Below, piece by piece: positions 4,390 to 50,456 of a stretch of DNA of 64,000 nucleotides. Within the stretch, counting starts at the first letter, position 1; each line of letters begins with the position of its first letter. Both the position numbers and the translations under genes were made by a program. The notes under the pieces were generated by a model that did not search any database, was not told where the DNA came from, and saw only the letters and a list, made by a program, of their open reading frames with translations. This stretch comes from Meandrina meandrites (lineage: Eukaryota; Cnidaria; Anthozoa; Scleractinia; Meandrinidae): NCBI GenBank assembly GCA_963693305.1, contig OY855910.1:20366362-20430361 (forward strand), read 5' to 3'.

Positions 4390-5898
4390 CGTTGGTCAAT
4401 TAATGTTGTAATGTAGCTGTAGGCTTGTGAGCTACACAGATAATTATTGTAGGGTAGTAGAATCCAAGCAATAGTCCCAGAAGTGCCTTTGTCGTAGGGT
4501 ATATTCACTGTAGTAACAGACATTGAGTTCTTGTTAGTTTCTGTGGTTTCAGTAGTTCGGTGAGTGATGATTGATGGTGACTGATGGTTTTCTTCTTGGA
4601 TAGAAACAACATTAACCTGTTTTAAGGTGGCTCCATAGCGTAATAACATAGATGTCGCGCGCTACGGTTATATTTCGAAATCTGGTTTTTGTATCTGTTT
4701 TCAGTTTGGTCAAACTTATCAAATACAATAAGCTAAGGTTGAAATAGTGTTCTACAACCATTTATGTTAAAATATTGGGTTTAAGTCGTGAATTAATATT
4801 ACCCAAACAAATGCGGGTGAAATCGGTGAAATCTTGTAAAATTTTCACAGTACATGGATACTACTTGGAAAATAATTTTAAACAGAAAAAAGAAGGTGGT
4901 TGTAAAGGGAGCTTCTTTGTTATGTGCAAATTTGTGTTTTTCCCCTCTGCGTAAAAACTGGTCTTATAGATTTTAGCAAAACAATTATAGCCTCTCTGCA
5001 AACTTTTACGAAATTTCACCGAAGGAAATGCGAGAAAAATTAGATGAAAGTTGCCATTTTTGCCCCCCAAATTTGTAACTATTGGGTAACAGAATAGAAA
5101 TTCCCCAAGATCGCTATTTGAGCATGCATCAACATGGAAACCACTAGGCTCGCTTACAGTGTTTACTGTGCGTTTAATGCAATTCCATGATGAAAAATCT
5201 ACAACCTCATAATATTTGGAAGTTTAAACAGCATTGTCTGTTCTTAAAATTCTACTGAGGACAAAGATATTTCCTTTGAAACGTTTAACTGAAATCCGTG
5301 GTTAAACATTTTTGCCTGAGCTAAGCCATAATCCTTGGGCTGGAGTAAGTGCCCCTTCTGCCAAGAGGACAAAGGCAAGAAACTTGTGTCTCCAGCAGAC
5401 TTATTTGCTTTATAGCATTAGTGTACTGAGTTTCATGCTTTTATCATAAAGTGCACAATTACCCCCAAAAATAGCACTTATCCACTGGACTAAGAGGAAA
5501 AAGGAACCTGTTAATTTGAAGTTAAAATATTTTAAACTGGTAATGCAGTGGCGTACAAATATTGTGAGATATCTGTACTTCACAATAACCAAACTACAAA
5601 TATACCTAATTGAAGAAATGTTGGCCGCATGAAAAACATCAACCATGAATGCATTGGTGAGCTTACTTATGTTTCTTTTATTGATAATCAAGATATTTCT
5701 TTCTTTGAGAGCCTTTAGAGCATGATTTATGAACTGGTCTTATTATCATTTTTATTCTGTCAGAGATGACAATTATTGTTTCCGATTTCCCAGTAAACAT
5801 TTGGTTTCCAACGTTAAATACATCTTATTAGACATTAAAATTTTTAGTGCATAGTATCACTGTATACAGCTATTTCAATTAATGTTGTCAGAATTTTT
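4390..5898. other. Non-coding stretch
   Basis: No gene, clear repeat or RNA gene was recognised. The open frames are short (under 95 codons) and match no family I know. Confidence 0.4.
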
Positions 5899-5959
5899 GT
5901 GACCTTTCACGCGAAAATGTACACTAACGGTTTTCCGTTAAACGGCTGAAACGAACGGC

Positions 5960-6440
5960 TATCGAACGGTCTACGAACGGTTTTTCAAGCCGTTCGAAAC
6001 GGTTTCATCAAACGGGTGAACGGGTTACTAAGTATTCCGAACGGGCAAGCTAACCGTTCGAAAGGTTCATGAAATTTCTCGAACGGTTTGGCAAAACGTT
6101 CGAACGGTTTATGAAATTTTCCGAACGGTTTGTGAAAACGTTCGAACGATTTATGAAAATTACCGAACGGTTTGCCAAAACGTTCGAACGGTTTATGAAA
6201 TTTTCCGAACGGTTTGTGAAAACGTTCGAACGGTTTATGAAAATTACCGAACGGTTCATGAAGTTTCCAATTGAAGTCATATTTTCAAGGGAGCTTTCAG
6301 TTGTTCATGGCGTATCTGTTTGGAAAATTGACAAGGCCGTTCGAAGGCTGCTCAGTCACTTGCTATTTACACTTGTCGTTCGAACGGTATGACGAACCGT
6401 TTGATAAAATTCATAAACCCTTCGAACGTTTTGTCGAACC
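5960..6440. repeat. 42-bp array of CCGTTCGAACGG-type palindromes
   Basis: The unit is about 42 bp and alternates a TTCGAA-centred palindrome with ATGAAATTTTCC or GTGAAAACG spacers. Because 42 is a multiple of three, frames stay open on both strands, giving artefactual repetitive peptides. It is part of the transposon starting at 5899. Confidence 0.8.
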
Positions 6441-7430
6441 GAAGTGGCTATGTATTCTGTAGTTACTCCACACGTAGTTTTATTTCAGCAATTTGTTTTT
6501 GTTTTAAGCAGCCACACAAACAAAGTATTCAGTTTTTAAAAAACATGCAAACACGCACGTCGCGTAGATCTTGCCAAATTTGCATCGTTCCACACGCCTC
6601 ACACTAAGGGGAGGGGTAGAATGTTTATTTGTCGCTTGCACGCGTAATCTGACCGCGGTGTTTGATAACGGCCTTATGATCGCCGACGTTGCGCCACATC
6701 CTCTGACGATGGCGTATTCTTGTCGAATGTGAAAATTCGCGGCGGCTGTTTAGGTCGTTAGAACCGAGCGATTGCAATGATTTTTGGCCCAAGGCTTGGT
6801 AATTTATCGAACTATATTTGCCCGAGGCTGGATGGCGAAGCGACGCGTGAAAATTTGAGAAATTGGAAAATTCGGGGCTGTGTCGGGATTTGGCGGCGTT
6901 GGAAGCTGCATGCCTTGTCTCTTTCTTTGGTATTAGTAAAGGGCGTCAGTGGCAAGTGAGGAATTAATCGTCCCAAAACCACACTAAAGCTATAGACAAT
7001 CAACATTAGGCAAGTGATCTTTATTTATCTGGCTTACAGTTTATTGTAATTTAGGAACAAAAGATCTCAAATTCAGCGATTTATGGGGCATTACAATCGT
7101 TTGAGTCAAACCGAGAACGACCGTTGCATATCATTAACAAGGCCATCGCTTGGTCTGCCTGTGACTTGGGTGTAAAAAAACAAACAAACAAGCGTGCAAT
7201 TTATCAGCTAAAACAAATCGACTGTGGTTCTGAAATAAATGAGCAGTTAAAGTTATATTTCTTAACCACAGAGAGCAAACTGAAGATAAAAGGTACGGTT
7301 TGGCGCAGTGAGTCTAAGGGAGATTGGGACAGATAAATGAACAAGCAGTCAGGTTTTTATTTAGTACAGAGGAACTTTAAACAGATAAATAATTTTAGCA
7401 TACGAATGACTGGGACTATACAGGACTACG

Positions 7431-7435
7431 TATAC
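7431..7435. repeat. Left target-site duplication of the Polinton (tatac)
   Basis: The five bases tatac lie directly outside the left end, and the same five follow the right end at 18430-18434. Polintons usually give 6 bp. The sixth base would be g on the left and t on the right, so this is either a 5-bp duplication or a 6-bp one with a mismatch. Confidence 0.75.
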
Positions 7436-10400
7436 AGTAGGTATGTTTTGGGAGTTCTGGCTCATTCTCCCAATTTCCTCGATGAATTCGAGGATTTTCT
7501 CGGAAAACATACTTTTGAGACACTCGAGGATTTTCTCGATTTATCTCCATTGATTTTTCATGTGTATCATCCTCTCAAAGATTTATGAGAAAATGAAATA
7601 TTAGCTTAAAAAGAATAAATTGAATACTAAATGGATTCTAACAATCAACCAATACCGGAGGTTAATATCCCGATTCCAGCTCCATCAAGAGTATCACAGA
7701 TAAAGAATCTTGCCACTGATTTGGCAGCACCCGTAAAGAGTGTAATAAACAGGTTTACAGGATGGTTATTAAATTATATCCCTGAACCTATCAAAAGAGC
7801 TGTGAATGAGAGAGTCGAGAACCTGAAGGAGAGAGTAAACAGTATATTCGGAAGGCGGGAAGAAGTAGGTCAACCTGTAGATGATGTAAATTCACCAGAA
7901 GAGGATAATCTCACACCCAGAGAGTACAAGACAGCTATAAAGGGTTATTTTAAAACGTTTAGAGTTAACGGTATAGACGGTATGGATGAGAAGACGTTTA
8001 TGAATAGCGTCAAACCGAGGGTTATAGATCTCATAAAGAGTAAGGGATCTATCAAAGTCAAGTTAATTCTCACCGTAAAGTTTACCAAAGAGAATCCCGC
8101 CACAGGTAACATCGACATTAATGTATACTCTTTCGCATCAAAAATGGAGATTGTGACAGAGGCAACTGATCTCTCTAAATTATTCGATCATATGGTAGAT
8201 AAAATCTTTGAATTGATACAGAATTTTAATAACAGAGGTTCCGGTTGGCAATTCGATCGAGTTGAACACCTTGACATAAACATTAACCCATTCAATCCTC
8301 TGTCTGCTTCATCATATATTGAGTTACCAAGTAGTTTATACATGAAAAAGGCGATAATAAACGTCAAGAATGAGAATGATAATGAGTGTTTTAAGTGGGC
8401 AGTAACCTCAGCAGTGTTTCCTCAAAAGAAAAATGCAGAGAGACTAAGCAAACGGATGAGAGAAGATTCAGAAAAGTTTGACTGGGCAGGTATCGAGTTT
8501 CCTGTCTCACTTAAACAGATAGATAAGTTTGAGAATAATAACCCTTACGCAATAAATGTATTTGGTTATGAAAGGGTTGTTTACCCTTTAAGAATAAGCA
8601 AAAAGAATGAACAGAATTGTGAACAGGTGATAAACCTTCTACTTATCGCTAATGAAGAGACCAATCACTTCTGCTGGATCAAAAACATGTCGAGACTTTT
8701 ATCTTCTGATGTTAGTAAGCACCACGGTAAGCGACATTTCTGCTACAGATGCTTAAACTCGTTTCATTCAGAGAAATCACTGGAAAATCATAAAGAGTAC
8801 TGTCAGAATAACGAGGCTGTCAAGATTGAGATGCCGATCAGAGTAGACGATGAAGGAAACACTTTTCCCGTCTATATAAAATTCAATCATTTTCATAAGA
8901 AGATGAGAGTTCCCTTTGTTGTCTATGCAGATTTTGAATGCTTCACAGAGAAGATAGACACATGTCAACCCAACGATAACAAAAGCTTCACCAACCGATA
9001 TCAAAAGCATAAACCCTCAGGTTTCAGATATCTTATCAAATGCTTTGATGATAACCTTTTATCACCGAAACTCGTTCACTACACAGCTGAATCTCTAGTT
9101 GATGATATTCCTCAGTTATTCATTGAGTCTTTGGAGAAGGATATCAAGGAGATCTATAACAGGTTTAAAATACCGAAGAAGATGGTGATGACACCAGAGG
9201 ATGAGATCGACTATGAAAAGGCAACTCACTGTCACATCTGTGAGGGTAAATTAAAAAACACTGATGATAAAAAAGAAAAAAAGGTTCGCGACCATTGTCA
9301 CCTCACCGGTAAGTTTAGAGGAGCAGCCCATAACAAATGTAATTTAAAGTTTAAAATACCCAAGTTCTATCCTGTCATATTTCACAATCTCTCAGGTTAC
9401 GACAGTCATCTCTTTATCAAAAACCTCGGTAAATCAGAGGGAAAGATAAACTGCATACCCAATAACGAGGAGAAGTACATCTCATTTACAAAGCAGATAA
9501 TTGTTGATAAATTCACTGATGAGGAAGGAAAAATCTTTGAGGTAAAGCGTGACATAAGATTCATCGACTCTTTTAAATTCATGGCGACTAGCCTAGACAG
9601 TTTGGTAAAGAACCTTCCTAAAGAGTCTTTTAAAAACCTTACAGAATTTTATGAAGGTGATGAGTTAAACCTTCTATTAAGAAAGGGTGTCTTTCCCTAC
9701 GATTGGTTCGATAACTTTGACAGACTCTCTGCTGATAACCTTCCTCTCAAAGAGTCATTCCACTCAATATTGAATGATAGCGGAATATCAGAAGAGGATT
9801 ATCAACACGCACAGAATGTGTGGGAAACATTCAAGATGAAGACCATGAGAGATTACCATGACCTCTATCTAAAGAGTGATGTTCTCCTTCTCTCAGACGT
9901 CTTTGAAAACTTCAGGGATGTTTGCCTTGATAATTACCGTCTCGACCCGATATTCTATTACACAGCTCCCGGACTCGCTTGGGATGCATGTTTAAAAATC
10001 ACCAAGGTCGAACTGGAACTTTTGGAAGACTATGAGATGTTGATGATGGTTGAGAAAGGAATTCGAGGAGGAGTCTCTATGATCTCTACGAGATACGGAA
10101 AGGCAAACAACCCTTACATGAAAGATTACGATCCCGATCAACCGAACAAGTTTATCTCTTATCTCGATGCTAATAATCTCTACGGTTGGGCAATGTGTAA
10201 ACCTCTGCCGACTAAAGGTTTTAGATGGATGACAAAAGAAGAGTTGAAAGATTGGAAGAGTATGCCGTGCATACTTGAGGTAGACCTTACCTATCCAGAG
10301 AAACTTCACGACCTGCATAACGACTATCCGTTAGCACCGGAGAGACTCATCGTGAATAAGGTAGAGAAATTAATTCCTAATCTAAACGATAAAAAGAATT

Positions 10401-10762
10401 ACGTTATTCATCACGAAACTTTGAAACTCTATCTATCTCTAGGTCTTAAACTAACCAAGATTCACAGAGGGATCACATTCGAAGAGTCAGCGTGGTTAAA
10501 GCCGTACATCGATCTTAACACGAATCTCAGGTCGAAGGCAACCAATGATTTTGAGAAAGACTTTTTCAAGTTGATGAATAACTCCGTATTCGGAAAGACT
10601 ATGGAGAACATCAGAAACAGAGTCGACATAAGATTGGTCACTCGAGAGAGTCAGGCGAAGAAGTTAACATGTAAACCGAATTATCAACATCACACAATAT
10701 TCTGTGAGAATCTCACCGCTGTTCATATGAAGAAGGTCAGTCTAAAATTCAATAAACCCGTC
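7436..10762. repeat. Left 3,327-bp terminal inverted repeat
   Basis: The reverse complement of 15103-18429 matches this segment over its whole length. The two polymerase translations are identical for residues 1-1044, antisense shadow frames have the same lengths and sequences, and the 195 bp of non-coding sequence before the gene match base for base as read. Homology ends at AATAAACCCGTC, after which the arms diverge. Confidence 0.92.
7488..7538. repeat. Subterminal 15-bp direct repeats
   Basis: TCGAGGATTTTCTCG occurs at 7488-7502 and 7524-7538, 36 bp apart and 53-103 bp from the element end. Each copy is itself a small inverted repeat (CGAG...CTCG). The mirrored pair lies in the right arm at about 18327-18377. 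They could be origin, integrase or promoter binding sites; function is not shown. Confidence 0.6.
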
Positions 10763-10822
10763 GTACTCGAATGCCAAACCTTTACCTTTGGGAGTGACTA
10801 TGTCAGGGTTATAGCCGTCTAA
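7631..10822 (+). pseudogene. polB: Truncated duplicate of Polinton DNA polymerase B (no motif C)
   Basis: This frame is identical to the right-arm polymerase for its first 1,044 residues, then runs 19 unrelated codons past the arm boundary and stops. Seen in order: a C2H2 finger (about 371-391), an endonuclease-VII-like zinc segment (CHIC at about 534, DHCHLTGKFRGAAH from 554), exonuclease motifs I (YADFECF, about 432), II (FHNLSGYDSH, about 584) and III (near 741), polymerase motif A (YLDANNLYG, about 844) and motif B (NNSVFGKT, about 983). Motif C (TDTDS) would lie just past the breakpoint and is missing, so polymerization should be impossible. The exonuclease and N-terminal regions remain intact. 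The start is the same ATG as the complete copy. Its 3' end overlaps the nuclease stub tail to tail. Confidence 0.9.
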
Positions 10823-10942
10823 CTCGAGGTTCTGATAAGTCCAAGGATTCTTTAACCAATCGGGTCTTACCGATCTGAACTCTTTTTTAAATAGGTCTTG
10901 AAATATCTTTCTGCACTTCTCTTCATATACTCCGAATGACAT
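10742..10942 (-). pseudogene. 5' stub of a PD-(D/E)XK-like nuclease gene cut by the arm junction
   Basis: This is a 66-codon frame. Residues 1-61 come from the unique region and the last five from the repeat arm. The segment contains NLELDGYNPDI followed by LAFEYD, a pattern I know from small nuclease-like proteins of large DNA viruses and Polintons, where the E-D-Y and F-E-Y residues belong to the active-site core. The gene stops exactly where the inverted arm begins (10762), so the rest of the nuclease has been lost. It begins at an ATG preceded by an AT-rich stretch and belongs to the leftward block with the 168-aa protein, ATPase and capsid genes. Nuclease identity is moderate confidence; truncation at the junction is directly visible. 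Confidence 0.6.
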
Positions 10943-10998
10943 TTTAATTAACTATTAAGAAATGTTTAAGTTAAGCTTAACAGTCTTTACCAAGTCTA

Positions 10999-11505
10999 TT
11001 AAGAGTCTTCTTCATTCTCTTGATTTTTGTTAGAATTCTCCTCACTCGGTCTTAACTTTACGTGCTTAGCGACCTTAAAGAGTCCGCTAGCTAACGCTAC
11101 CAATCTTCCTCCCTTGAGTACCAAGAGACCTGCAAAGTTACTCAGTTCACGTTTAACAAGATCATCGTTCTTCAAGTCTTCATTCAGTGCCTCCACATCA
11201 TCCACGGGAATGACGTAAGAGATAAGAACACTCGCTGCGGAGATGGCTGACTCCACCAATCCGGTCGATACCTTCTTTCCCATTACGGTCTTGTATCGAT
11301 TAAAGTATTTTTTCACCTGTTTCGGTGATAGTCTCTTAATATCTCCGAGGGACATCGCTTTACCGAGAAACTCCTCTGTCGATCCTAGGGAAGCGAGTAT
11401 CGCGAGTGATTCTCTCTGAGTATCGAGATCATCATCATCATCATCGGGGGTCTTATCCTCTTTAACCTCGGGTATATCTTCAATATAATCTTCAACGTTC
11501 GCCAT
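10999..11505 (-). CDS. Polinton protein of unknown function, 168 aa
   Basis: I do not recognise this protein. It starts with an acidic region that includes a run of six aspartates (about 21-26). A charged middle follows, then two hydrophobic stretches (about 82-101 and 124-147, the latter rich in Gly, Leu and Ala), and a charged tail rich in Glu, Asn and Ser. Hydrophobic segments in a small Polinton protein could mean a membrane-active or minor virion protein, but that is inference. It lies 56 bp downstream of the nuclease stub's start and 50 bp downstream of the ATPase stop, all on the same strand, so it is probably part of the late-type leftward gene block. Confidence 0.75.
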   Translation of the reverse strand: MANVEDYIEDIPEVKEDKTPDDDDDDLDTQRESLAILASLGSTEEFLGKAMSLGDIKRLSPKQVKKYFNRYKTVMGKKVSTGLVESAISAASVLISYVIPVDDVEALNEDLKNDDLVKRELSNFAGLLVLKGGRLVALASGLFKVAKHVKLRPSEENSNKNQENEEDS

Positions 11506-11555
11506 CTCTGTCTGTTGATATGATTGGTGAAACCTTTAAATTACTAAGTCTTCTT

Positions 11556-12176
11556 TTAAACCGGTATCTCGAGATAACACTCAAAAGGATATCTGAGGCA
11601 GAGACAGAGTCGAGAGTATCTCTCTGTTTTTAAAAGTTTCATGAATTTTTTTCGAGTCTCCGTGTCAAGATCTCCTCCGTAATCATCGAACAGGGTCTTC
11701 ATACCGATCGGTGAGGGATTGTGAAAAGTTACCACGCAGGAGACGTTCTCTCGGAAGGGTTTCGCTATCGATGTCAACTGCTGTGTTACCACCCATACAC
11801 TCAATCCGTGGTGCCTTCCCGAGAAAGCGAGGTCGATAAATTTATTGGAGCGTTGCTTAAGGTCTTTGGAGACGGCGCAGTCATCGAGAATGATCAGGGT
11901 GTTCGTCCCGGAGAAGAGAAGTGATACGTCTGTAAGAAGAGAATCGATCTCATCAGAGTTACTCGAATCCGGTGAGAGGATTAAGAATCGTTTATCACCT
12001 TGGGCAAACCCTCGGTAGGTCCTGTTCTTCGCATAGGTCGGACAGATAAGAACAATGTACTCAAATACCTTTCGGAAGGGTCCTCGGAGCTGTTCGATAA
12101 TGTACTCTGTCTTCCCGCAGTTCGTCGGCCCGGTTATGATCATGTTAAAGGGAATCTTATCTCGTAACTCATTCAT
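11556..12176 (-). CDS. Packaging ATPase, A32/FtsK-HerA type
   Basis: This 206-aa P-loop ATPase is expected to pump element DNA into capsids. Walker A is GPTNCGKT at residues 16-23. Walker B is LIILDD at 94-99, with the hydrophobic run then two acidic residues typical of this family. VVTQQ at 129-133 fits the sensor glutamine of FtsK-HerA proteins. Its length suits the compact Polinton and adintovirus-type ATPases. It sits between the 168-aa protein and the capsid gene on the same strand, the usual association of packaging and structural genes. The start ATG at 12176 is preceded by AT-rich sequence. No frame damage is visible. Confidence 0.85.
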   Translation of the reverse strand: MNELRDKIPFNMIITGPTNCGKTEYIIEQLRGPFRKVFEYIVLICPTYAKNRTYRGFAQGDKRFLILSPDSSNSDEIDSLLTDVSLLFSGTNTLIILDDCAVSKDLKQRSNKFIDLAFSGRHHGLSVWVVTQQLTSIAKPFRENVSCVVTFHNPSPIGMKTLFDDYGGDLDTETRKKFMKLLKTERYSRLCLCLRYPFECYLEIPV

Positions 12177-12259
12177 TTATTTATTAAGCGAGGGATTTTT
12201 TTAATATAGATTTACAAAAATATTTTTAGTCTGTTAAAAATATTTTCAAAAAAACTTTA

Positions 12260-13495
12260 TCAGTATAGGATCGACTTCAACTCTGTGTTCATTATCTCCA
12301 TAAATGCGTCAGCGACCACGAACATGTAACAGTTGATTTTTCCCGTTCCACCGACCTTCCTCTTGATCTCAAGTTTCACACCGTCTCGTGTTGTGTTTAT
12401 GTGAAGGCCTCCTCCGTGAATACCGTTGTCAGGAAAGGTTCTCAAATCGATCCAGAGAGCGAACTTGTCTGTGTAGAAATCCTCTTCCTTCACCTTACCA
12501 GAACCGCCCATTCGTCTCTTTATCGATTCCCAAAAGTCAGACGGAATCATACCCTTTGAGAAGAGTCGGTTAGGCATGCCATCGATGTTGATGTTGATCG
12601 ATTTAATGTCAGGATTGACAAACTTCTCAGAGTCTCGTTCTCCCTCTTTATAATCCTCTTCAAACAGACAGAGTATACCCGTCATCGACTTTCTCGGAAG
12701 ATTGATGTGCTCGTTAATTACACTATCGTTCGGCTTTGAGATGGGAAAACTTTTGTGAAGTATTACATTCTCGTAGTAGAATCCTTTGCCGACCTTATAA
12801 CTCGTCATCGCCTCACTTGAAAGGTCTTCACTTGTGATGCAACGATACTCCAACTCAAGGTTGTGAATATTATACGTTGGTGTTTTCTCCTTCTCTTTTT
12901 TATCATGATTTACTATCTGATCGACCTTCGAAAGAGTGATCTCAAACAACAGAGGATGAGGAAGAGCCTTCGGATAGAGGGCTCCGTGATCACTGAGAAC
13001 GGGATGGTCAAGAGGTATAACGTATTTGGTGTTGTGAATTGTGGCGAGGGCGACCTCTTTTGCGTCAGTTGTACTCTTATCCCCTGCAGGTGTACGAAGT
13101 TTTCTCATATTCTCGGATGAGATTCCCTGCCTCAATCTGTCATCTCGATCCTCGAGAAAGAGATCATGGTAGGTCTGAAAGAGATCGTATCTCTCTGTGG
13201 TCTGAAGTGTCTCACCGCCGAAAGAGACCTTGAGTTGGCAGACAAGGTTTCGACCGACGTTATTTACGAGAGTATTGTTTGCATGACCACCGACTTTCAG
13301 GTCGAAGAGAAGTTTAACGCTTCCCGGTACGATGACCACGTTATCAGAGAGTTTGGGAATGTAAATACTGATCGTCTCTCCGGGATTCGCTGATGAGGGA
13401 TTAAATGTGATCCTGTTGAGAGATGACTCCGCCTTAAGACCGAACGGTTCTCTCGGTACTCGGTTCGGATTGATAATCTCTGCGATAGCGGACAT
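12260..13495 (-). CDS. Probable major capsid protein (double jelly-roll)
   Basis: This 411-aa protein is, by position, length and pattern, the likely major capsid protein. The N-terminal third contains IPKLSDNVVIVPGSVKL followed by NTLVNNVGRNLV and VSFGGETLQ, which resembles the first jelly-roll of Polinton and adintovirus capsid proteins as I recall them. The rest is beta-rich with few cysteines and no transmembrane segment or signal peptide. It ends 83 bp before the ATPase on the same strand. Its ATG is only 27 bp from the divergent integrase ATG, so the two genes must share a very short promoter. A structure prediction would settle the fold; sequence alone supports it moderately. Confidence 0.72.
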   Translation of the reverse strand: MSAIAEIINPNRVPREPFGLKAESSLNRITFNPSSANPGETISIYIPKLSDNVVIVPGSVKLLFDLKVGGHANNTLVNNVGRNLVCQLKVSFGGETLQTTERYDLFQTYHDLFLEDRDDRLRQGISSENMRKLRTPAGDKSTTDAKEVALATIHNTKYVIPLDHPVLSDHGALYPKALPHPLLFEITLSKVDQIVNHDKKEKEKTPTYNIHNLELEYRCITSEDLSSEAMTSYKVGKGFYYENVILHKSFPISKPNDSVINEHINLPRKSMTGILCLFEEDYKEGERDSEKFVNPDIKSININIDGMPNRLFSKGMIPSDFWESIKRRMGGSGKVKEEDFYTDKFALWIDLRTFPDNGIHGGGLHINTTRDGVKLEIKRKVGGTGKINCYMFVVADAFMEIMNTELKSILY

Positions 13496-13522
13496 TTTAA
13501 AAGAGAGAAAGATTATTTTTAA
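13496..13522. promoter_or_regulatory. 27-bp divergent intergenic region between capsid and integrase
   Basis: Only 27 bp separate the two divergent start codons. The sequence is AT-rich, with TTTTAAA-like stretches on both sides (TTTTAAAAGAG and TTATTTTTAAATG). Transcription of both genes must start here or inside the neighbouring gene, and 5' leaders must be very short. Confidence 0.4.
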
Positions 13523-14530
13523 ATGAGTAACGAGAAAACTAACATTAAAAACCTTATGAGAAAAATATACTATAGTCCGGAGGGTTATTGGAAAGGGTAC
13601 TCTGCGGTATCTAAATTATCGAACGCGGCAAATGTCAGTGAGGATGAGTCGAGAGATTGGTTGGAGAGACAGGCACTTTGGCAGATCTATTTACCACCGC
13701 CGAAGTATTTACCGAGACCACATTGGAGTGTGAGTAGACCGAATGAGATTCACCAAGCGGATCTTCTCTTTCTTCCTCACGATAAGGTGGGAAGAAAGAC
13801 TTATAGATACGCTTTGGTTGTGATCGATGTTGCCTCGAGATATAAAGATGCGGAAGCGTTAACATCGAAAGAGAGTCAAGAGGTAGCGAAAGCCTTTGAG
13901 AAGATCTACTCTCGAAAGCTTAAGAGACCTTCTCTTAAGTGGCCAAAGAGAATAATGGTCGATCCCGGTAAAGAGTTTATGGGTTATGTGACGAAGTTGA
14001 TGGAGAGACATAATGTGAAGATACAGAGAAGCGAAGCGGGTAACCATCGAGCTCAGGCATTTGTTGAGAGAGCGAACAGAACTTTGGGAGAGAGATTATT
14101 TAGCCATCAGTATGCACAGGAGATGGTTACCGAAGGGAGATCGAGAGTCTGGGTGAATAGATTGCCCGCCGTTATGAAAGCGTTAAACTCTCAGGTGATC
14201 AGGATCACAGGAAAGGAACCTGATAAAGCCCTCGGTTTAAAAGAGGTTGATATTAAACAGGTTAATTACAAAAGACCTGTCGGATTAAAAGAGAAGAGAT
14301 TACCCTCGGGTGTTCAGGTAAGGTATCTTCTCTCTCCCGGAGAGGATGAGGGAGGAGAGAGAAGGAGAGCGACTGATCCGATCTGGAGTATCGAGATTTA
14401 TAATATAAATCGTGTGGTGATCTCTCCTGAACAGCCTGTTTTATATTATCTTCTCGACGGACCGAAGAGATCGTTTGTGAGAGAGGAGCTTCAAGTCGTG
14501 CCGTTGGGTACTGAATTACCTCCTTTATAA
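13523..14530 (+). CDS. int: Polinton DDE integrase (retroviral-like)
   Basis: This 335-aa integrase inserts the element into chromosomes. The catalytic triad is visible: D80 in HQADLLFLP, D147 in MVDPGKEF and E182 in AFVERANRTL. The second and third residues are 35 positions apart, as in retroviral and Polinton integrases. The N-terminal 60 residues are helical and lack an obvious HHCC zinc motif. The C-terminal part, including DPIWSIEIYNI and YYLLDGPKRSFVREEL, fits a small SH3-like or chromo-like DNA-binding domain. The last 40 bp overlap the end of the right polymerase gene on the other strand. No neighbouring reverse transcriptase exists, which rules out an LTR retrotransposon. The frame is intact. 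Confidence 0.92.
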   Translation: MSNEKTNIKNLMRKIYYSPEGYWKGYSAVSKLSNAANVSEDESRDWLERQALWQIYLPPPKYLPRPHWSVSRPNEIHQADLLFLPHDKVGRKTYRYALVVIDVASRYKDAEALTSKESQEVAKAFEKIYSRKLKRPSLKWPKRIMVDPGKEFMGYVTKLMERHNVKIQRSEAGNHRAQAFVERANRTLGERLFSHQYAQEMVTEGRSRVWVNRLPAVMKALNSQVIRITGKEPDKALGLKEVDIKQVNYKRPVGLKEKRLPSGVQVRYLLSPGEDEGGERRRATDPIWSIEIYNINRVVISPEQPVLYYLLDGPKRSFVREELQVVPLGTELPPL

Positions 14531-17500
14531 TGACCGCGAGCGAAGGTGTGAATGTTATCCTCCCGTATGATCCTCTTATCATCGAACGGAGAGAGAGCGA
14601 TCTTGTTAACCGTCTCGGTGTACATGGTGTGTAGATGACTTCTGATCACATTCATCTTTCTCATAGCGGGTTTATTATCGAAGAGGCAGTCTTTGTAATC
14701 GTTGAAGGTGATGGTCTTCTTTATCACCGCCTTCTTCACTCCCTTACACTTCTTCTCCTCGCAAGCGTCGCTGACTCTATATGAGTAGAGTTTAGCTCTC
14801 AAGCCGACAAACTCTGCGATCTGCTTCCCTGAGGCCTCGTCTTTGAACATGCCGATGACCTTCTTGTTTACACCAGTGAGAATGCCGCTTGGATGATCCT
14901 TCGGGTAATTACTCGTATCGAACTTTGATTTCACATCGGAGGAGATGTCTCTATAAAAATCTTCTGTCTGTATCTCATAGGCGAGGCTGTCCGTGTCTGT
15001 GAATAAGAGCTTCGCATTCTCTCCGTACTTGGGTTTGATGTAATTATAATGAAAATCGTACATCAAAGTCTTACTCAGATCGAGGATTGACATACCGAGG
15101 TAGACGGGTTTATTGAATTTTAGACTGACCTTCTTCATATGAACAGCGGTGAGATTCTCACAGAATATTGTGTGATGTTGATAATTCGGTTTACATGTTA
15201 ACTTCTTCGCCTGACTCTCTCGAGTGACCAATCTTATGTCGACTCTGTTTCTGATGTTCTCCATAGTCTTTCCGAATACGGAGTTATTCATCAACTTGAA
15301 AAAGTCTTTCTCAAAATCATTGGTTGCCTTCGACCTGAGATTCGTGTTAAGATCGATGTACGGCTTTAACCACGCTGACTCTTCGAATGTGATCCCTCTG
15401 TGAATCTTGGTTAGTTTAAGACCTAGAGATAGATAGAGTTTCAAAGTTTCGTGATGAATAACGTAATTCTTTTTATCGTTTAGATTAGGAATTAATTTCT
15501 CTACCTTATTCACGATGAGTCTCTCCGGTGCTAACGGATAGTCGTTATGCAGGTCGTGAAGTTTCTCTGGATAGGTAAGGTCTACCTCAAGTATGCACGG
15601 CATACTCTTCCAATCTTTCAACTCTTCTTTTGTCATCCATCTAAAACCTTTAGTCGGCAGAGGTTTACACATTGCCCAACCGTAGAGATTATTAGCATCG
15701 AGATAAGAGATAAACTTGTTCGGTTGATCGGGATCGTAATCTTTCATGTAAGGGTTGTTTGCCTTTCCGTATCTCGTAGAGATCATAGAGACTCCTCCTC
15801 GAATTCCTTTCTCAACCATCATCAACATCTCATAGTCTTCCAAAAGTTCCAGTTCGACCTTGGTGATTTTTAAACATGCATCCCAAGCGAGTCCGGGAGC
15901 TGTGTAATAGAATATCGGGTCGAGACGGTAATTATCAAGGCAAACATCCCTGAAGTTTTCAAAGACGTCTGAGAGAAGGAGAACATCACTCTTTAGATAG
16001 AGGTCATGGTAATCTCTCATGGTCTTCATCTTGAATGTTTCCCACACATTCTGTGCGTGTTGATAATCCTCTTCTGATATTCCGCTATCATTCAATATTG
16101 AGTGGAATGACTCTTTGAGAGGAAGGTTATCAGCAGAGAGTCTGTCAAAGTTATCGAACCAATCGTAGGGAAAGACACCCTTTCTTAATAGAAGGTTTAA
16201 CTCATCACCTTCATAAAATTCTGTAAGGTTTTTAAAAGACTCTTTAGGAAGGTTCTTTACCAAACTGTCTAGGCTAGTCGCCATGAATTTAAAAGAGTCG
16301 ATGAATCTTATGTCACGCTTTACCTCAAAGATTTTTCCTTCCTCATCAGTGAATTTATCAACAATTATCTGCTTTGTAAATGAGATGTACTTCTCCTCGT
16401 TATTGGGTATGCAGTTTATCTTTCCCTCTGATTTACCGAGGTTTTTGATAAAGAGATGACTGTCGTAACCTGAGAGATTGTGAAATATGACAGGATAGAA
16501 CTTGGGTATTTTAAACTTTAAATTACATTTGTTATGGGCTGCTCCTCTAAACTTACCGGTGAGGTGACAATGGTCGCGAACCTTTTTTTCTTTTTTATCA
16601 TCAGTGTTTTTTAATTTACCCTCACAGATGTGACAGTGAGTTGCCTTTTCATAGTCGATCTCATCCTCTGGTGTCATCACCATCTTCTTCGGTATTTTAA
16701 ACCTGTTATAGATCTCCTTGATATCCTTCTCCAAAGACTCAATGAATAACTGAGGAATATCATCAACTAGAGATTCAGCTGTGTAGTGAACGAGTTTCGG
16801 TGATAAAAGGTTATCATCAAAGCATTTGATAAGATATCTGAAACCTGAGGGTTTATGCTTTTGATATCGGTTGGTGAAGCTTTTGTTATCGTTGGGTTGA
16901 CATGTGTCTATCTTCTCTGTGAAGCATTCAAAATCTGCATAGACAACAAAGGGAACTCTCATCTTCTTATGAAAATGATTGAATTTTATATAGACGGGAA
17001 AAGTGTTTCCTTCATCGTCTACTCTGATCGGCATCTCAATCTTGACAGCCTCGTTATTCTGACAGTACTCTTTATGATTTTCCAGTGATTTCTCTGAATG
17101 AAACGAGTTTAAGCATCTGTAGCAGAAATGTCGCTTACCGTGGTGCTTACTAACATCAGAAGATAAAAGTCTCGACATGTTTTTGATCCAGCAGAAGTGA
17201 TTGGTCTCTTCATTAGCGATAAGTAGAAGGTTTATCACCTGTTCACAATTCTGTTCATTCTTTTTGCTTATTCTTAAAGGGTAAACAACCCTTTCATAAC
17301 CAAATACATTTATTGCGTAAGGGTTATTATTCTCAAACTTATCTATCTGTTTAAGTGAGACAGGAAACTCGATACCTGCCCAGTCAAACTTTTCTGAATC
17401 TTCTCTCATCCGTTTGCTTAGTCTCTCTGCATTTTTCTTTTGAGGAAACACTGCTGAGGTTACTGCCCACTTAAAACACTCATTATCATTCTCATTCTTG

Positions 17501-18234
17501 ACGTTTATTATCGCCTTTTTCATGTATAAACTACTTGGTAACTCAATATATGATGAAGCAGACAGAGGATTGAATGGGTTAATGTTTATGTCAAGGTGTT
17601 CAACTCGATCGAATTGCCAACCGGAACCTCTGTTATTAAAATTCTGTATCAATTCAAAGATTTTATCTACCATATGATCGAATAATTTAGAGAGATCAGT
17701 TGCCTCTGTCACAATCTCCATTTTTGATGCGAAAGAGTATACATTAATGTCGATGTTACCTGTGGCGGGATTCTCTTTGGTAAACTTTACGGTGAGAATT
17801 AACTTGACTTTGATAGATCCCTTACTCTTTATGAGATCTATAACCCTCGGTTTGACGCTATTCATAAACGTCTTCTCATCCATACCGTCTATACCGTTAA
17901 CTCTAAACGTTTTAAAATAACCCTTTATAGCTGTCTTGTACTCTCTGGGTGTGAGATTATCCTCTTCTGGTGAATTTACATCATCTACAGGTTGACCTAC
18001 TTCTTCCCGCCTTCCGAATATACTGTTTACTCTCTCCTTCAGGTTCTCGACTCTCTCATTCACAGCTCTTTTGATAGGTTCAGGGATATAATTTAATAAC
18101 CATCCTGTAAACCTGTTTATTACACTCTTTACGGGTGCTGCCAAATCAGTGGCAAGATTCTTTATCTGTGATACTCTTGATGGAGCTGGAATCGGGATAT
18201 TAACCTCCGGTATTGGTTGATTGTTAGAATCCAT
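14491..18234 (-). CDS. polB: Protein-primed family B DNA polymerase, full length
   Basis: This 1,247-aa polymerase should replicate the linear element from its termini. Its N-terminal about 70 residues are basic and amphipathic, followed by a poorly conserved region that may hold the terminal-protein function. Then come a C2H2 finger (371-391), exonuclease motif I (D434, E436), an inserted endonuclease-VII-like zinc segment (534-575), exonuclease II (N586, Y590, D591), exonuclease III (near 741-757), and polymerase motifs A (D846), B (NNSVFGKT, about 983) and C (TDTDS, 1079-1083). All catalytic aspartates are present, so it is probably active. The first 1,044 codons lie in the inverted repeat and are duplicated in the left arm. 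Its 3' end overlaps the integrase gene by 40 bp. Confidence 0.93.
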   Translation of the reverse strand: MDSNNQPIPEVNIPIPAPSRVSQIKNLATDLAAPVKSVINRFTGWLLNYIPEPIKRAVNERVENLKERVNSIFGRREEVGQPVDDVNSPEEDNLTPREYKTAIKGYFKTFRVNGIDGMDEKTFMNSVKPRVIDLIKSKGSIKVKLILTVKFTKENPATGNIDINVYSFASKMEIVTEATDLSKLFDHMVDKIFELIQNFNNRGSGWQFDRVEHLDININPFNPLSASSYIELPSSLYMKKAIINVKNENDNECFKWAVTSAVFPQKKNAERLSKRMREDSEKFDWAGIEFPVSLKQIDKFENNNPYAINVFGYERVVYPLRISKKNEQNCEQVINLLLIANEETNHFCWIKNMSRLLSSDVSKHHGKRHFCYRCLNSFHSEKSLENHKEYCQNNEAVKIEMPIRVDDEGNTFPVYIKFNHFHKKMRVPFVVYADFECFTEKIDTCQPNDNKSFTNRYQKHKPSGFRYLIKCFDDNLLSPKLVHYTAESLVDDIPQLFIESLEKDIKEIYNRFKIPKKMVMTPEDEIDYEKATHCHICEGKLKNTDDKKEKKVRDHCHLTGKFRGAAHNKCNLKFKIPKFYPVIFHNLSGYDSHLFIKNLGKSEGKINCIPNNEEKYISFTKQIIVDKFTDEEGKIFEVKRDIRFIDSFKFMATSLDSLVKNLPKESFKNLTEFYEGDELNLLLRKGVFPYDWFDNFDRLSADNLPLKESFHSILNDSGISEEDYQHAQNVWETFKMKTMRDYHDLYLKSDVLLLSDVFENFRDVCLDNYRLDPIFYYTAPGLAWDACLKITKVELELLEDYEMLMMVEKGIRGGVSMISTRYGKANNPYMKDYDPDQPNKFISYLDANNLYGWAMCKPLPTKGFRWMTKEELKDWKSMPCILEVDLTYPEKLHDLHNDYPLAPERLIVNKVEKLIPNLNDKKNYVIHHETLKLYLSLGLKLTKIHRGITFEESAWLKPYIDLNTNLRSKATNDFEKDFFKLMNNSVFGKTMENIRNRVDIRLVTRESQAKKLTCKPNYQHHTIFCENLTAVHMKKVSLKFNKPVYLGMSILDLSKTLMYDFHYNYIKPKYGENAKLLFTDTDSLAYEIQTEDFYRDISSDVKSKFDTSNYPKDHPSGILTGVNKKVIGMFKDEASGKQIAEFVGLRAKLYSYRVSDACEEKKCKGVKKAVIKKTITFNDYKDCLFDNKPAMRKMNVIRSHLHTMYTETVNKIALSPFDDKRIIREDNIHTFARGHYKGGNSVPNGTT

Positions 18235-18429
18235 TTAGTATTCAATTTATTCTTTTTAAGCTAATATTTCATTTTCTCATAAATCTTTGAGAGGATGATA
18301 CACATGAAAAATCAATGGAGATAAATCGAGAAAATCCTCGAGTGTCTCAAAAGTATGTTTTCCGAGAAAATCCTCGAATTCATCGAGGAAATTGGGAGAA
18401 TGAGCCAGAACTCCCAAAACATACCTACT
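15103..18429. repeat. Right 3,327-bp terminal inverted repeat
   Basis: This is the mirror of 7436-10762, of equal length. The inner edge falls inside the polymerase gene, between motifs B and C, so only this side continues into the C-terminal 203 codons. That makes the right side the ancestral arrangement and the left side the copy. Confidence 0.92.
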
Positions 18430-18434
18430 TATAC
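18430..18434. repeat. Right target-site duplication of the Polinton (tatac)
   Basis: tatac follows the right end and matches 7431-7435. Removing the element and one repeat gives CTACGTATACGTAG, a perfect 14-bp palindrome. Confidence 0.75.
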
Positions 18435-18815
18435 GTAGCAAACGGGTTGCTGAACTGATAGAATGGTTATTTTAGGTAGGTGATTTAATTGAACGACTGT
18501 CCAAGCCAGAGGGAGTTCGAAAGGATTGCTGACTTTTCGTTTACAAAAAGTTGACCCAGCCGTGCCGTTCAAATCGATTGACGTTTTTAACGAATGGTTG
18601 ACCAAGCCGTTCTAATGGCAATTGACTTTTAATCGAACGGTTGACCAAACCGTTCGAACGGATCGAGAAATTTTGCGAACGGTTCATTAAACCGTTCGAA
18701 TGGCCTGAGAAATTTAGCGAACGGTTGACCAAACCGTTCGAACGGACTGAGAAATTTAGCGAACGGTTAACGAAACCATTCGAACGGATTGAGAAATTTA
18801 GCGAACGGTTTCCCA
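18435..18815 (-). mobile_element. Right portion of the split CCGTTCGAACGG-array transposon (copy 1)
   Basis: From about 18590 the sequence is the reverse complement of the first array of the complete copy (about 48900-49165): a unit of AACGGTTGACCAAACCGTTCG followed by a GAGAAATTTAGCG spacer, 42-bp period. It stops abruptly at about 18815 without the outer terminal repeat, so this end is truncated. The order array, middle, array matches the complete copy read backwards, with the Polinton placed in the middle. Confidence 0.6.
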
Positions 18816-19379
18816 AAGTGTGTATTTTTGCACGTGGAGTATTTGTTTTCCTTGCTGTGAGACCTTTCTTATATCTTTTCTTTTGCTTTTACGTGGTTTG
18901 GATTACTCTTTTAAAAGAAAATTCGGCGAAAAAGGATCTTTTCTTCACATGTCAGAAGAAAAAGAAAATGCAAAAAGTCTTGTTTGCTATATCGCTATAT
19001 CTCATTAGTATTCAGCACGCGTGGAACACTCTACCTTCGTCCACACTACCTTTGGGTCTTGTCTTTAAGCTTTAAGCTTCAATCCGACAAGGTTGATTGA
19101 AATAGCTGTATCCTGGCAAGCCCAAAGGGAAAGTCACAATACAAATAATGACAAGTACAAATGTACAGTGATACTACAAATTAAAATGTCTTATAAAAGA
19201 TTTATTACCCAACATTTTCTTTTCTCCACCAAACTTTTCAACCTTTTGCATGGCCAAAAGGAACAAGGGGCTACAAGAAATCTGTCAAGCCAGTTTTGTG
19301 TAGTACAGTGTACAGATATCTCAGGATATTTGTCCTCCACAATGATTTCGGAAAATTATTTCATGTTATTGCACTGTAC
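18816..19379. other. Intron or 3' flank of PWP2, nothing recognised
   Basis: Only short unsupported frames are present. The region lies downstream of the fourth PWP2 exon and upstream of any further exon, which would have to lie left of the window. Confidence 0.4.
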
Positions 19380-27229: not shown

Positions 27230-28074
27230 CTGTACAGAAAAAAAAAATTGGTACTCTTTAACACACCACACTACAGTTCACTTTAGCATTTTACCATGCC
27301 ATGTTTTTAATTTGTGGTCACAAAACACCAGTAATAGCAGTAAAACCTGGTTATAAGAATTTAAGCAGCTGTCTCTGTAAAAGCCACCCACTTAAATTTG
27401 CGACAAAACTAATTTTACTTGAAAGTCTGCTAACTGAAAGACTTTGCAGAGGCTAGAACTAAAACATGTTTTGTTTTGTGCAAAATGATTTTCTTGCTGT
27501 ATTAGGGCCATCAAATTTTTTGCCTTTTCTGAGCCTGATGCCTCAAAAAATTAGAAATAGGATTTTTTCATTCGCATCGTCTACAAACCGTGTTTTATAT
27601 CAATTTGTTCATAAACATTTCTAGATTTCAAAAGAGGCAGCAAATGTTCACTCATATGTCTGGAAATGTAAAATCAAGCATATTAAGACCACAACTAACC
27701 GGCATCAAACAAAAGCTAAAAATGACCTTGATTTAAAAGCAAAAATACTTCAAAGTTCGGACCTAGTTGATGACACGACCGTACACAGCTGAAAAGTGTA
27801 ATCTTTTATTAGCCAAACTATACAAAAAACATGACTCTACATTTTCAGTATTTTTATAGTTATGACTGTTTGTATAAGCACATGTATAAGTATTTACGAT
27901 TCTCTGAAAGATCAAGTACTGATTGATGCTGCTTTCACAGAGGTCTACACAAAAGAGGAGACAACTGATTGTATGCCCAACAAGATTGCTGATGCAAATA
28001 ATACTTTTTATCCCATTATGATGGCAAACTGCTAAACACTATTTCATTCACTGGCTCTGATCCTAAAATATAAA
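27230..28074. other. PWP2 intron, no gene recognised
   Basis: Nothing beyond short unsupported frames. Confidence 0.35.
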
Positions 28075-28200
28075 ACATAGGCACGCTAAGCATGCAGGAG
28101 TTATTTTTTCAATTGATTGGGTGGCTTGGGGTAAGACTGGGTGTTAGTCCTATTGGGATGGTTTATTTCATGGGTTGAGCTATTTGTGCATGGTGCATCA
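28075..28200 (+). repeat. Dispersed 125-bp repeat, inverted copy at 36575-36705
   Basis: The segment containing GGCACGCTAAGCATGCAGG and GATTGGGTGGCTTGGGGTAA is nearly the reverse complement of 36575-36705. It is probably the end of an unclassified transposon. Confidence 0.6.
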
Positions 28201-28319
28201 CTAACTACATAGCCCCTTACTACGACTACGACGAATTTGCGTTGTGCATTATAACAGGCGAGCGTTTCAAATCTGGGGTTAATTCACAACTCACCAATTC
28301 CGCCTCCTACAAATCTTAA

Positions 28320-30053
28320 AGGTCAAATGAACCAAAATTTCGAATTTTCTTTTTTTTAGGCCAACTTGTTGATTAAGAACCAAATAAACATATTCCGAAA
28401 TTTCAAAGTAATTGGACTTTGCAAAACAGAGAAATTTCAAGTTGAAAAATGCTTATTTTAGGCTTTCATAATCATATAGTGCTCGGGAAAATTGTCGAGA
28501 AATTTTCGGAACTTAAAACTGTGACGTCATTATTGGTGTGCTGTCAAATTGCGGGAAATTCAAAGTCTTTCAGTGATGAAGCTCGCAAGAATGGGACATC
28601 ATGGTGTTTTGTGCGGCACCAAACTGCTTGAACAATTCTAAGTCGAAAGTAAATACGTTTAAGTTTCCAGCAAATTCAAAGCTCAGGAAACAATGGCTTT
28701 TGAAAATGAAAAGAAAAGAATTTAAGCCAGACAAGAACTCTCGCATTTGTGCGGTTCATTTTACCGAAGACTGCTTCAGAGAAAATCTGGTGATACGTAG
28801 ATTTTTGGTTCTGATTGCCTCCCAAAGCACAAAGGTCCCCCTGTTCGTTCAGCTTTTGCTAAACGAAAGAAGTTAGAGGTATGCATTTTGCACCTTTCTT
28901 ATTCTACCTAGAGCTAGATAGAGTATTTGTTATGATTATTACCACTTTTACTTTGTTGGTTTGGCTGGTCATGATCAAGTATTAGAATTTGAATTCGTTA
29001 GTTCAATATCCTCGCCAAATAATTTGCTTCCATGCATGTGCACGTGCTTTTTGACGCGTATAAAATTATGCTTCAAAGGTTGTCTTTAGGTTGGGTTTAC
29101 AACCGTTAATTTCGAGCACTAAATAACAGGCACCGGTTAAATAAATATGGACCAAAAAACAGCTAATACAAACAGAACTCACAGTGTCCACAGGAACAGT
29201 GTGTAAACACTCTGTACTTATTTCAACATTAAATTTTCCCCCAGTTGAAAAATAAAACGACACGAATTTATTCATTGAAAGTTTTACCCTGCGTGATGCT
29301 TTTACGGTTTCGAATTTGCATTGAGAAATATCCTTACATTCAAGTTAAATTTTTGAGTACAAATTTATTTTTGTGTTTTGTGTGACTCTCGAGTACGGAA
29401 AAGAAACAGTGAATTCAATCTTAGATATGGCTTTTGGCCAAATCCTATGCAAGCCGCACACGTCCTGATAAGAATTACCGTGCAAATCCAAAAATACTGC
29501 ATTTCACTTGGGGTATATAACAAAATTAATTGTTCTATACCAAGCTGATCTAAGCAGACTGATGATTTTTATACGCCATCCAGTGTTTGAAAACCTCCCA
29601 TATCGTACAATGCTTACAATTTTACTCAGTGCTTTGATAATTATTAATCTTTGAAACTGGATTCCAATGTAGTAAAATATATAACAACAATGTTTAAAAA
29701 AAAGCTTAGATCCTTTCAGAATTATTTGAATTACTCAGACTGATTCAAACTCTCAAACTTTACATTATTCGCTCTTTAAACGACGATCGTCTCGTCGATC
29801 GCAAAGCCGTAAAATAAAACTATTATGTCACAAAATTCAAAGCTCGATCCATTCCTTCCATTTCAGTGCACGATCATTTTGGAAACGTTTTCGTGATGTC
29901 TTCGGAAATCTTCGTAGTTTTTGCTATAGTTCGCACTTTAAGGCTCAGAAAGCAAAATTTCGCCTTAAGTTTACTTAATAATGAATTCTTCCAGCGTTTG
30001 GTTGCTTTAAAATCGCTAAAGAAAGAATGTCGAAATTTTGGTTCATTTGACCT
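28320..30053 (+). mobile_element. Kolobok-like TTAA element with THAP ORF, copy 1
   Basis: The terminal inverted repeats begin AGGTCAAATGAACCAAAATT and are flanked by TTAA (28316-28319 and 30054-30057). A TTAA duplication together with a THAP domain points to the Kolobok superfamily. At 1,734 bp, with only a THAP-encoding frame and no transposase catalytic region recognised, it is probably non-autonomous. A second copy, in opposite orientation, lies at 54630-56454. Confidence 0.75.
28601..28876 (+). CDS. THAP-type zinc finger ORF of the TTAA element (copy 1)
   Basis: The N-terminal about 70 residues form a THAP C2CH DNA-binding domain: C4 and C9, W32, then C50 and H53 in ICAVHF. Such domains bind transposon ends. 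After about residue 72 the frame departs from the expected THAP tail, and the neighbouring frame continues with basic residues to a possible splice donor (GAG|GTATGC at about 28878), so a one-base frameshift is likely. No transposase domain follows. Read as a mobile-element exon or remnant, not a host gene. Confidence 0.65.
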   Translation: MVFCAAPNCLNNSKSKVNTFKFPANSKLRKQWLLKMKRKEFKPDKNSRICAVHFTEDCFRENLVIRRFLVLIASQSTKVPLFVQLLLNERS

Positions 30054-50115: not shown

Positions 50116-50456
50116 AAATTACCCTTGAAGCTTCAAAAGTGCCGGAAATCTTCAACCGATTAACTCAAGCAGTCACCCCCATGATGGCTGCACAAGGATT
50201 CCACACAATACTAGCATACCTTGAGGATTTCCTTATTATTGGCAATAGCAAACATGAGTGCAAATTAGCTTACCGAGAATTTATCCGCCTTTTGAGCGAA
50301 CTTAGTTTTAACATCAACTGGGAGAAAGCAGTTGCTCCTACTCAGCAATTAACATTTCTAGGAATACAGATTGACACAGTGCTTAGGCAGATTTGTTCGC
50401 CCAAAAGCAAGCCATGCAAACTGCAACAATTATTAAGTGATACATTGATTAAGTGA
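50116..50456 (+). pseudogene. DIRS/Ngaro-like reverse transcriptase, C-terminal part
   Basis: The frame reads VPEIFNRLTQAVTPMMAAQG, then ILAYLEDFLIIGNS, where YLEDF stands in place of the usual Y-D-D-type active site (YLDDF), then KAVAPTQQLTFLGIQID. The altered residue agrees with decay. It continues the part before 48744. Confidence 0.75.

What the first reader, a model, noticed from the sequence alone, without database searches (positions are those of the whole stretch)
7436..18429. Polinton whose left arm is an inverted copy of its right arm
Seen: 3,327-bp inverted arms that read as identical, each including the polymerase gene up to codon 1044, with only 4,340 bp of unique DNA between them. 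The right copy continues to a full polymerase; the left runs into an unrelated frame and cuts a nuclease-like gene. Known: Polintons normally have one polymerase and far shorter termini, and protein-primed linear genomes (adenoviruses) can duplicate an end. Inference: the left end was lost or recombined away and rebuilt from the right end, giving a palindromic, self-complementary element. Snap-back of displaced single strands of such a genome could give a long panhandle, a possible replication aid or defective-interfering form.
Basis: partly seen in the sequence, partly recalled or inferred. Interest (0 to 1): 0.88.

Follow-up and report, generated by a model that had tools for sequence, protein, structure and literature searches.

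The report
Polinton with a copied-back end
A virus-like mobile element in a eukaryotic genome has lost one end and carries in its place a perfect mirror copy of its other end, most likely a fossil of a copying error made while the element replicated as linear DNA; a second element in the same genome shows the opposite end copied.

Summary
The right arm runs on into a 1,247-aa polymerase; the left copy stops after codon 1044. Ordinary relatives in the same 551-Mb genome are 14.3-21.4 kb, with terminal repeats of about 208-412 bp and a different left arm. The junction lies on a 5-bp microhomology, CCGTC, and occurs once in the genome. A perfect 5-bp duplication, TATAC, bounds the palindrome, as in 10 of 11 measurable relatives. 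A second, mirror-image case, C8:23017459-23028589, has an inverted copy of its LEFT end (1,265 bp, 98.6%) in place of the right end, joined at a 3-bp microhomology. I read both as copy-back products of linear replication, then integrated. Repair inside the chromosome predicts the same sequences and is not excluded. No reads were seen; no replication aid or interference was shown. New variant of a known kind.

The parts
7431..7435 (.). left target-site duplication TATAC
   Evidence: same 5-bp size as relatives
7436..10762 (+). left arm: inverted copy of the right end (3,327 bp)
   Evidence: 0 mismatches
7436..7644 (.). stretch matching the 209-211-bp TIR of close relatives, left copy
7631..10822 (+). 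truncated polymerase ORF: 1,044 codons identical to the full gene plus 19 others; lacks the TDTDS motif
10758..10762 (+). CCGTC microhomology, last five bases of the left arm (GACGG at 15103-15107 in the right arm)
   Evidence: relatives read ACACCGTC|GTACTCG, polymerase reads AACCCGTC|TACCTC
   Evidence: 128-aa gene in L012
10999..11505 (-). 168-aa protein also present in L012, function unknown
11556..12176 (-). A32-type packaging ATPase
   Evidence: PF04665 E 2.5e-11
12260..13495 (-). major capsid protein, double-jelly-roll type
   Evidence: PF16903 below cut-off; structure comparison of both halves
13523..14530 (+). integrase with rve core
   Evidence: PF00665 E 6.8e-9
14491..18234 (-). full-length polymerase (1,247 aa) with an endonuclease VII-like segment
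15103..18429 (-). right arm, the donor end (3,327 bp)
18221..18429 (.). stretch matching the 209-211-bp TIR of close relatives, right copy
18430..18434 (.). right target-site duplication TATAC

Best explanation
This is an integrated copy-back derivative of a roughly 14-16-kb Polinton-like element. Inferred events: a new strand started at the right end and copied leftward as far as the cut gene at 10763; its 3' end, ending in GACGG, left the template, annealed to the matching five bases in polymerase codons 1043-1044 on the already displaced (or its own) strand, and copied back to the right terminus. That one step drops the left arm (about 6.8 kb in relative C7a) and supplies a second, 3,327-bp right end: a panhandle with a 4,340-nt loop, then a palindromic duplex. 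Both ends carried a terminus the integrase could use, and the molecule was inserted with a 5-bp TATAC duplication. The element at C8:23.0 Mb would be the same error made by a strand started at the left end. Shown: arms, microhomologies, replaced arms, termini, duplications. Inferred: protein-primed replication, the switch before integration, dependence on helper functions.
For: Arms identical over 3,327 bp. In 16 of 20 fetched neighbour pieces homology to the window begins at 10758, taking in just the CCGTC of the arm, and beyond it they carry another left arm; 0 of 20 hold an inverted polymerase. 5-bp microhomology. Perfect 5-bp TATAC duplication; 10 of 11 measurable ordinary relatives have a perfect 5-bp duplication, the eleventh matches at 4 of 5. 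A second palindrome of opposite polarity: C8:23017459-23028589, arms 1,265 bp with 18 mismatches, right side made of inverted left-arm sequence joined to integrase sequence at CGT, duplication TGGCC/TGACC (4 of 5). Terminal repeats of relatives vary (about 208-211, 216, 220, about 343, 412 bp), two have an older 73-79% inverted block further in, and left-end genes start with a diverged copy of the polymerase start (67-74% aa).
Against: Nothing in the sequence separates a switch before integration from repair after it. No polymerase family matched and its structure model failed (pLDDT 31), so protein priming rests on recalled motifs. Each junction was found once, so neither form is shown to have spread. 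Eight relatives differ between their terminal repeats at 11 of 1,897 positions, predicting 19 differences in 3,327 bp against 0 seen (17 if C11, 0 of 209, is added): the window arms must be very young or homogenised. In the second palindrome the outer 662 bp hold 4 mismatches and the inner 603 hold 14 (p 0.015), which a single copying event does not explain.
Confidence: 0.57

Rival explanations
1. Repair in the chromosome: a normal element inserted at TATAC; a later break in its left arm was repaired by the left terminal repeat invading the right one, copying 3.3 kb inward and joining to the cut gene at CCGTC. The C8:23.0 Mb element arose the same way from the other end.
For: Relatives carry near-identical terminal repeats that could serve as homology; microhomology joins are typical of end joining; target duplications are kept in this model too. 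C7a and C7b, copies of one insertion in a 99.8% duplicated segment, differ at an end, which suggests that ends can change inside a chromosome.
Against: Needs a gap of several kb plus one-sided repair, twice, in both polarities. Nothing decisive.
Confidence: 0.32
2. Assembly artefact: the true left arm was replaced in the assembly by right-arm sequence.
For: Arms perfectly identical and this junction unique; no reads were available.
Against: The junction shares only 5 bp, far below an assembler's overlap; arms stop exactly at a matching 5-bp duplication and the window has no N; a second, mirror-image case has arms that differ at 18 of 1,265 positions, which a duplicated-sequence artefact would not give; the left flank beyond its repeat matched only here among the 40 of 362 candidates scored.
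Confidence: 0.08
3. Two head-to-head insertions with an internal deletion.
For: Neighbouring copies in one orientation do occur (L017).
Against: One matching 5-bp duplication at the outer ends and 0 differences between arms, when other copies differ from the window's polymerase start by 5-12%.
Confidence: 0.03

Closest known systems
Polinton/Maverick elements (vertebrate set, PMC8097293, passages seen)
   Same: rve integrase, packaging ATPase, double-jelly-roll capsid protein, terminal inverted repeats, ends beginning AGTAG
   Different: 5-bp rather than 6-bp target duplication; 3,327-bp arms against 46-1,447 bp (mean 402); second, truncated polymerase copy; left arm missing; no protease found
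Copy-back defective genomes of negative-strand RNA viruses (paper listing; mechanism recalled)
   Same: complementary ends derived from one terminus, unique loop, loss of genes, short homology at the junction
   Different: DNA, and integrated in a chromosome; defectiveness and interference untested
Adenovirus incomplete-particle DNA (Daniell 1976, seen only as a reference in PMC12090768; inverted end duplication recalled)
   Same: linear protein-primed DNA virus whose defective forms carry duplicated ends
   Different: no integrase; in the window element the donor is the polymerase end
Hairpin or palindromic derivatives of the yeast linear killer plasmid pGKL1 (recalled, no call)
   Same: palindromic form of a terminal-protein linear DNA
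   Different: cytoplasmic plasmid; no unique centre of capsid and integrase genes

Membership tests
Polinton/Maverick | rve-type integrase | tested here: met
   PF00665 E 6.8e-9, above cut-off
Polinton/Maverick | A32/FtsK-HerA packaging ATPase | tested here: met
   PF04665 E 2.5e-11
Polinton/Maverick | double-jelly-roll major capsid protein | tested here: met
[quoted passage not shown]
   No Pfam polymerase hit; PDB sequence search empty or chance level; model failed; PF03175 genome search did not complete. Motifs YADFEC, DANNLYG, NNSVFGK, TDTDS present, their meaning recalled
Polinton/Maverick | adenain-like protease | tested here: inconclusive
   No protease hit in 6 window ORFs or 8 left-arm ORFs of L012
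Polinton/Maverick | 6-bp target-site duplication | tested here: not met
   5 bp here and in 10 of 11 measurable relatives; 6 bp is the vertebrate Maverick figure. Hence filed as Polinton-like
Polinton/Maverick | terminal inverted repeats | tested here: met
copy-back defective genome | both ends from one terminus, unique loop between | tested here: met
copy-back defective genome | junction at a short microhomology | tested here: met
   CCGTC; CGT in the second case
copy-back defective genome | loss of genes carried by the full-length form | tested here: met
   left arm of relatives absent from the window element
copy-back defective genome | replicates with helper, interferes | not testable with these tools
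   needs living material

The most novel reading that the evidence does not exclude
Polinton-like elements replicate as linear DNAs whose ends are repeatedly rebuilt by copy-back switches from either end, so that terminal-repeat length (about 208-412 bp in ordinary relatives, 1,265 and 3,327 bp in the two palindromes) records the last switch; the window element is an integrated DNA copy-back genome, a direct fossil of extrachromosomal protein-primed replication.
Probability: 0.36. Interest if true: 0.78.

Novelty: new variant of a known kind. Interest (0 to 1): 0.64.

Why it matters
How Polintons copy themselves has mostly been inferred from gene content (recalled). Two palindromic copies of opposite polarity, each bounded by a 5-bp target duplication (one perfect, one at 4 of 5) and each with a microhomology junction, against many ordinary relatives in one genome, would be structural evidence for a linear replicating form that makes copy-back errors. 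It would also suggest why terminal-repeat length varies between copies. If the changes took place in the chromosome instead, they document how terminal repeats expand by repair.

Tried and rejected
Chimeric truncated polymerases elsewhere: only 120 of 7,980 homologues were listed. Of these 120, 12 ended early or had tails; tails of 10 aa or more were compared with the fetched copies: P0121 matched sequence just downstream of the gene, P0189, P0223 and P0240 other-frame polymerase sequence, P0213 and P0230 nothing; shorter tails were not searched. No palindromic junction was seen. IMG/VR scans with polymerase and capsid protein found no relative. Polymerase structure model: unusable. Empty site: the left flank contains a dispersed repeat (6608-7163); beyond it no second copy among the 40 of 362 candidates scored. 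PDB sequence searches: no hit or chance level. Phage tblastn with the polymerase: no match. Censuses with L012:500-1400 and L008:1700-2300 did not complete. Papers not held: Daniell 1976 and a coral polintovirus paper seen in a reference list. Searches for a palindromic or copy-back Polinton in print: listings only; none by title. They cover the held open-access library alone.

Dropped before counts: the terminal-repeat clock uses 8 elements; left out are C2:41.0M and L003 (gapped), C7b (duplicate of C7a), C11 (measured later, 0 of 209) and C8:23.0M (palindrome). In L003 and L004 the alignment ran one base past the AGTAG terminus, and I reset the end by eye before reading the duplication. C7b is not counted among the 11 relatives.
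Full report
WHAT IS THERE. The window lies at G000:C8:20366362-20430361 in a 551-Mb assembly of 56 contigs. The arms 7436-10762 and 15103-18429 are exact reverse complements over 3,327 bp, with 4,340 bp between them. The core encodes an rve integrase, an A32-type ATPase, a double-jelly-roll capsid protein and a 168-aa protein. The right arm carries the 5' part of a 1,247-aa polymerase; the left arm carries the same 1,044 codons and then leaves the frame. The truncated copy keeps the exonuclease-like and the DANNLYG and NNSVFGK motifs but not TDTDS (motif meanings recalled).

WHAT THE NORMAL FORM LOOKS LIKE. A search with the first 195 bp gave 21 places, all 21 candidates scored. They are the two ends of the window element, the two ends of nine others, and one extra end at C7b. 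Eight of the nine are ordinary in layout: 14.3-16.1 kb for seven (C7b 14.3 or 15.0 kb by which end is used) and 21.4 kb for one. The ninth, at C8:23.0 Mb, is described below. Terminal repeats stop after 208-211 bp in the close relatives; four other copies show 216, 220, about 343 and 412 bp. Twenty 10-kb pieces next to other polymerase copies were fetched. Sixteen align to the window down to 10758, that is, as far as the last five bases of the arm; three stop earlier (10850, 10966, 10969); the twentieth, L017, holds a second element in the same orientation. None of the 20 holds an inverted polymerase. Beyond the boundary L012 has ten non-overlapping ORFs of 70 aa or more, picked by me from the 16 listed, among them the 128-aa cut gene (which straddles the boundary), a 144-aa Rho_N protein and a 318-aa protein with weak, below-cut-off similarity to a phage tail-fibre domain.

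THE JUNCTION. Relatives read ...ACACCGTC|GTACTCGAATGCC; the polymerase reads ...AACCCGTC|TACCTCG; the window reads ...AACCCGTC|GTACTCGAATGCC. The shared stretch is CCGTC. With 0 mismatches the 20-base junction pattern occurs only here, with 1 mismatch nowhere; at up to 3 mismatches there are 130 matches (76 forward, 54 reverse) against 25 for the reversed-pattern control, and those listed are nearly all the ordinary sequence of the relatives (the list is cut). A 280-bp junction query gave 1 full and 39 partial matches (40 scored of 456 candidates).

CENSUS OF PALINDROMES. A 1-kb polymerase-start query gave 40 places (of 300 candidates) with one inverted pair within 60 kb, the window itself. 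A 600-bp left-end query gave 40 main places (of 278 candidates) with one inverted pair, C8:23.0 Mb. Palindromes among unscored, more distant copies are possible.

A SECOND, MIRROR-IMAGE CASE. The element at C8:23017459-23028589 (11,131 bp) has inverted arms of 1,265 bp with 18 mismatches. Inside its left arm lies left-arm sequence of relatives. On its right side the first 400 bases of L053 match the integrase region of the window and of relatives, and from base 398 on it is inverted left-arm sequence. So here the right end, polymerase start included, is replaced by a copy of the left end, and the integrase gene is cut. The join shares CGT with both parents. The flanking five bases are TGGCC and TGACC. 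The mismatches are uneven (4 in the outer 662 bp, 14 in the inner 603; p 0.015), which I cannot explain.

THE OUTER ENDS. The window element is flanked by TATAC on both sides. Of 11 ordinary relatives that could be measured, 10 have perfect 5-bp duplications (C12, C7a, C2, C7c, C4, C10; C11; L003, L004, L008) and L002 matches at 4 of 5. So the whole palindrome has the outer anatomy of one insertion event. The site without the element would read CTACGTATACGTAG, itself a palindrome, which I take as chance.

AGE. Eight relatives differ between their two terminal repeats at 11 of 1,897 positions. At that mean rate 19 differences would be expected in 3,327 bp; 0 are seen. The window arms were made or homogenised recently. 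The second palindrome, at 1.4%, is older. Both leading models allow this.

MECHANISM. The simplest single event is copy-back: a strand started at the right end copies leftward to 10763, its 3' end GACGG pairs with the same bases complemented in codons 1043-1044 of the polymerase on the displaced or its own strand, and copying returns to the right terminus. The stretch it must pair with has by then been displaced, so the geometry works. A strand started at the left end gives the second case. The rival is one-sided repair in the chromosome using the short terminal repeat as homology; it too keeps the target duplication. I lean to copy-back because the event recurred with opposite polarity, because the second element has a cut integrase and no polymerase at its ends yet sits in a family-type duplication, and because other signs of end copying exist: variable terminal-repeat lengths, older 73-79% inverted blocks inside the present repeats (L002, L004), and left-end genes whose first 60-70 codons are diverged copies of the polymerase start (67-74% identity). 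All of these are indirect and also fit chromosomal exchange.

MEMBERSHIP AND NOVELTY. It is Polinton-like: integrase, ATPase, capsid and terminal repeats are met; the polymerase family and the protease are unsettled; the 6-bp duplication is not met. Vertebrate Mavericks have terminal repeats of 46-1,447 bp, mean 402 (PMC8097293, passages); a dinoflagellate set has 232-858 bp (PMC12721341, passages). Arms of 3,327 bp containing most of the polymerase lie outside both. No palindromic or copy-back Polinton appeared by title (listings). The kind of event is known for other linear genomes (recalled), hence new variant of a known kind.

LIMITS. No reads, no second individual, only the best-scoring copies listed, one assembly.

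Noticed in passing
G000:C8:23017459-23028589 (ends in L042, L043, L051-L054): Second palindromic element, of opposite polarity: right end replaced by a 1,265-bp inverted copy of the left end, integrase cut, 3-bp microhomology, 4-of-5 target duplication.
   Followed up: partly
G000:C7:538,699-553,700 (L006, L013, L033) against C7:368,555-382,872 (L005, L012, L029): Two copies of one insertion in a 99.8% duplicated segment; in one, the right terminus is followed by an inverted 686-bp copy of the left end joined exactly at the terminal base, then the same flank CGGCG. It looks like an integrase-type end-to-interior join, perhaps later lost from the other copy by recombination between direct repeats.
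   Followed up: partly
L012:57-491, L013, L030: The left-end gene of these relatives begins with a diverged copy of the polymerase N-terminus (Rho_N domain in L012), inverted relative to the polymerase: perhaps an older end duplication.
   Followed up: partly
L017: A second element in the same orientation lies directly beside a truncated one, probably a nested insertion.
   Followed up: no
window 6608-7163: Dispersed repeat, 51 matches listed (40 of 362 candidates scored), many in closely spaced inverted pairs, perhaps a fold-back element.
   Followed up: no
window 5896-6585, 18565-18817, 48863-50118: Diverged 42-bp tandem repeats rich in CCGTTCGAACGG lie on both sides of the element and recur inverted 30-44 kb away.
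   Followed up: no
window 55820-56170, with inverted similarity 28073-29951 / 54752-56443: ORF with a THAP domain inside a set of diverged inverted repeats, perhaps a transposase relative.
   Followed up: no
P0189, P0213, P0223, P0225, P0230 and others: Some polymerase homologues end early; the tails of P0189, P0223 and P0240 are other-frame polymerase sequence, so frameshifts; P0213 and P0230 tails matched nothing.
   Followed up: partly
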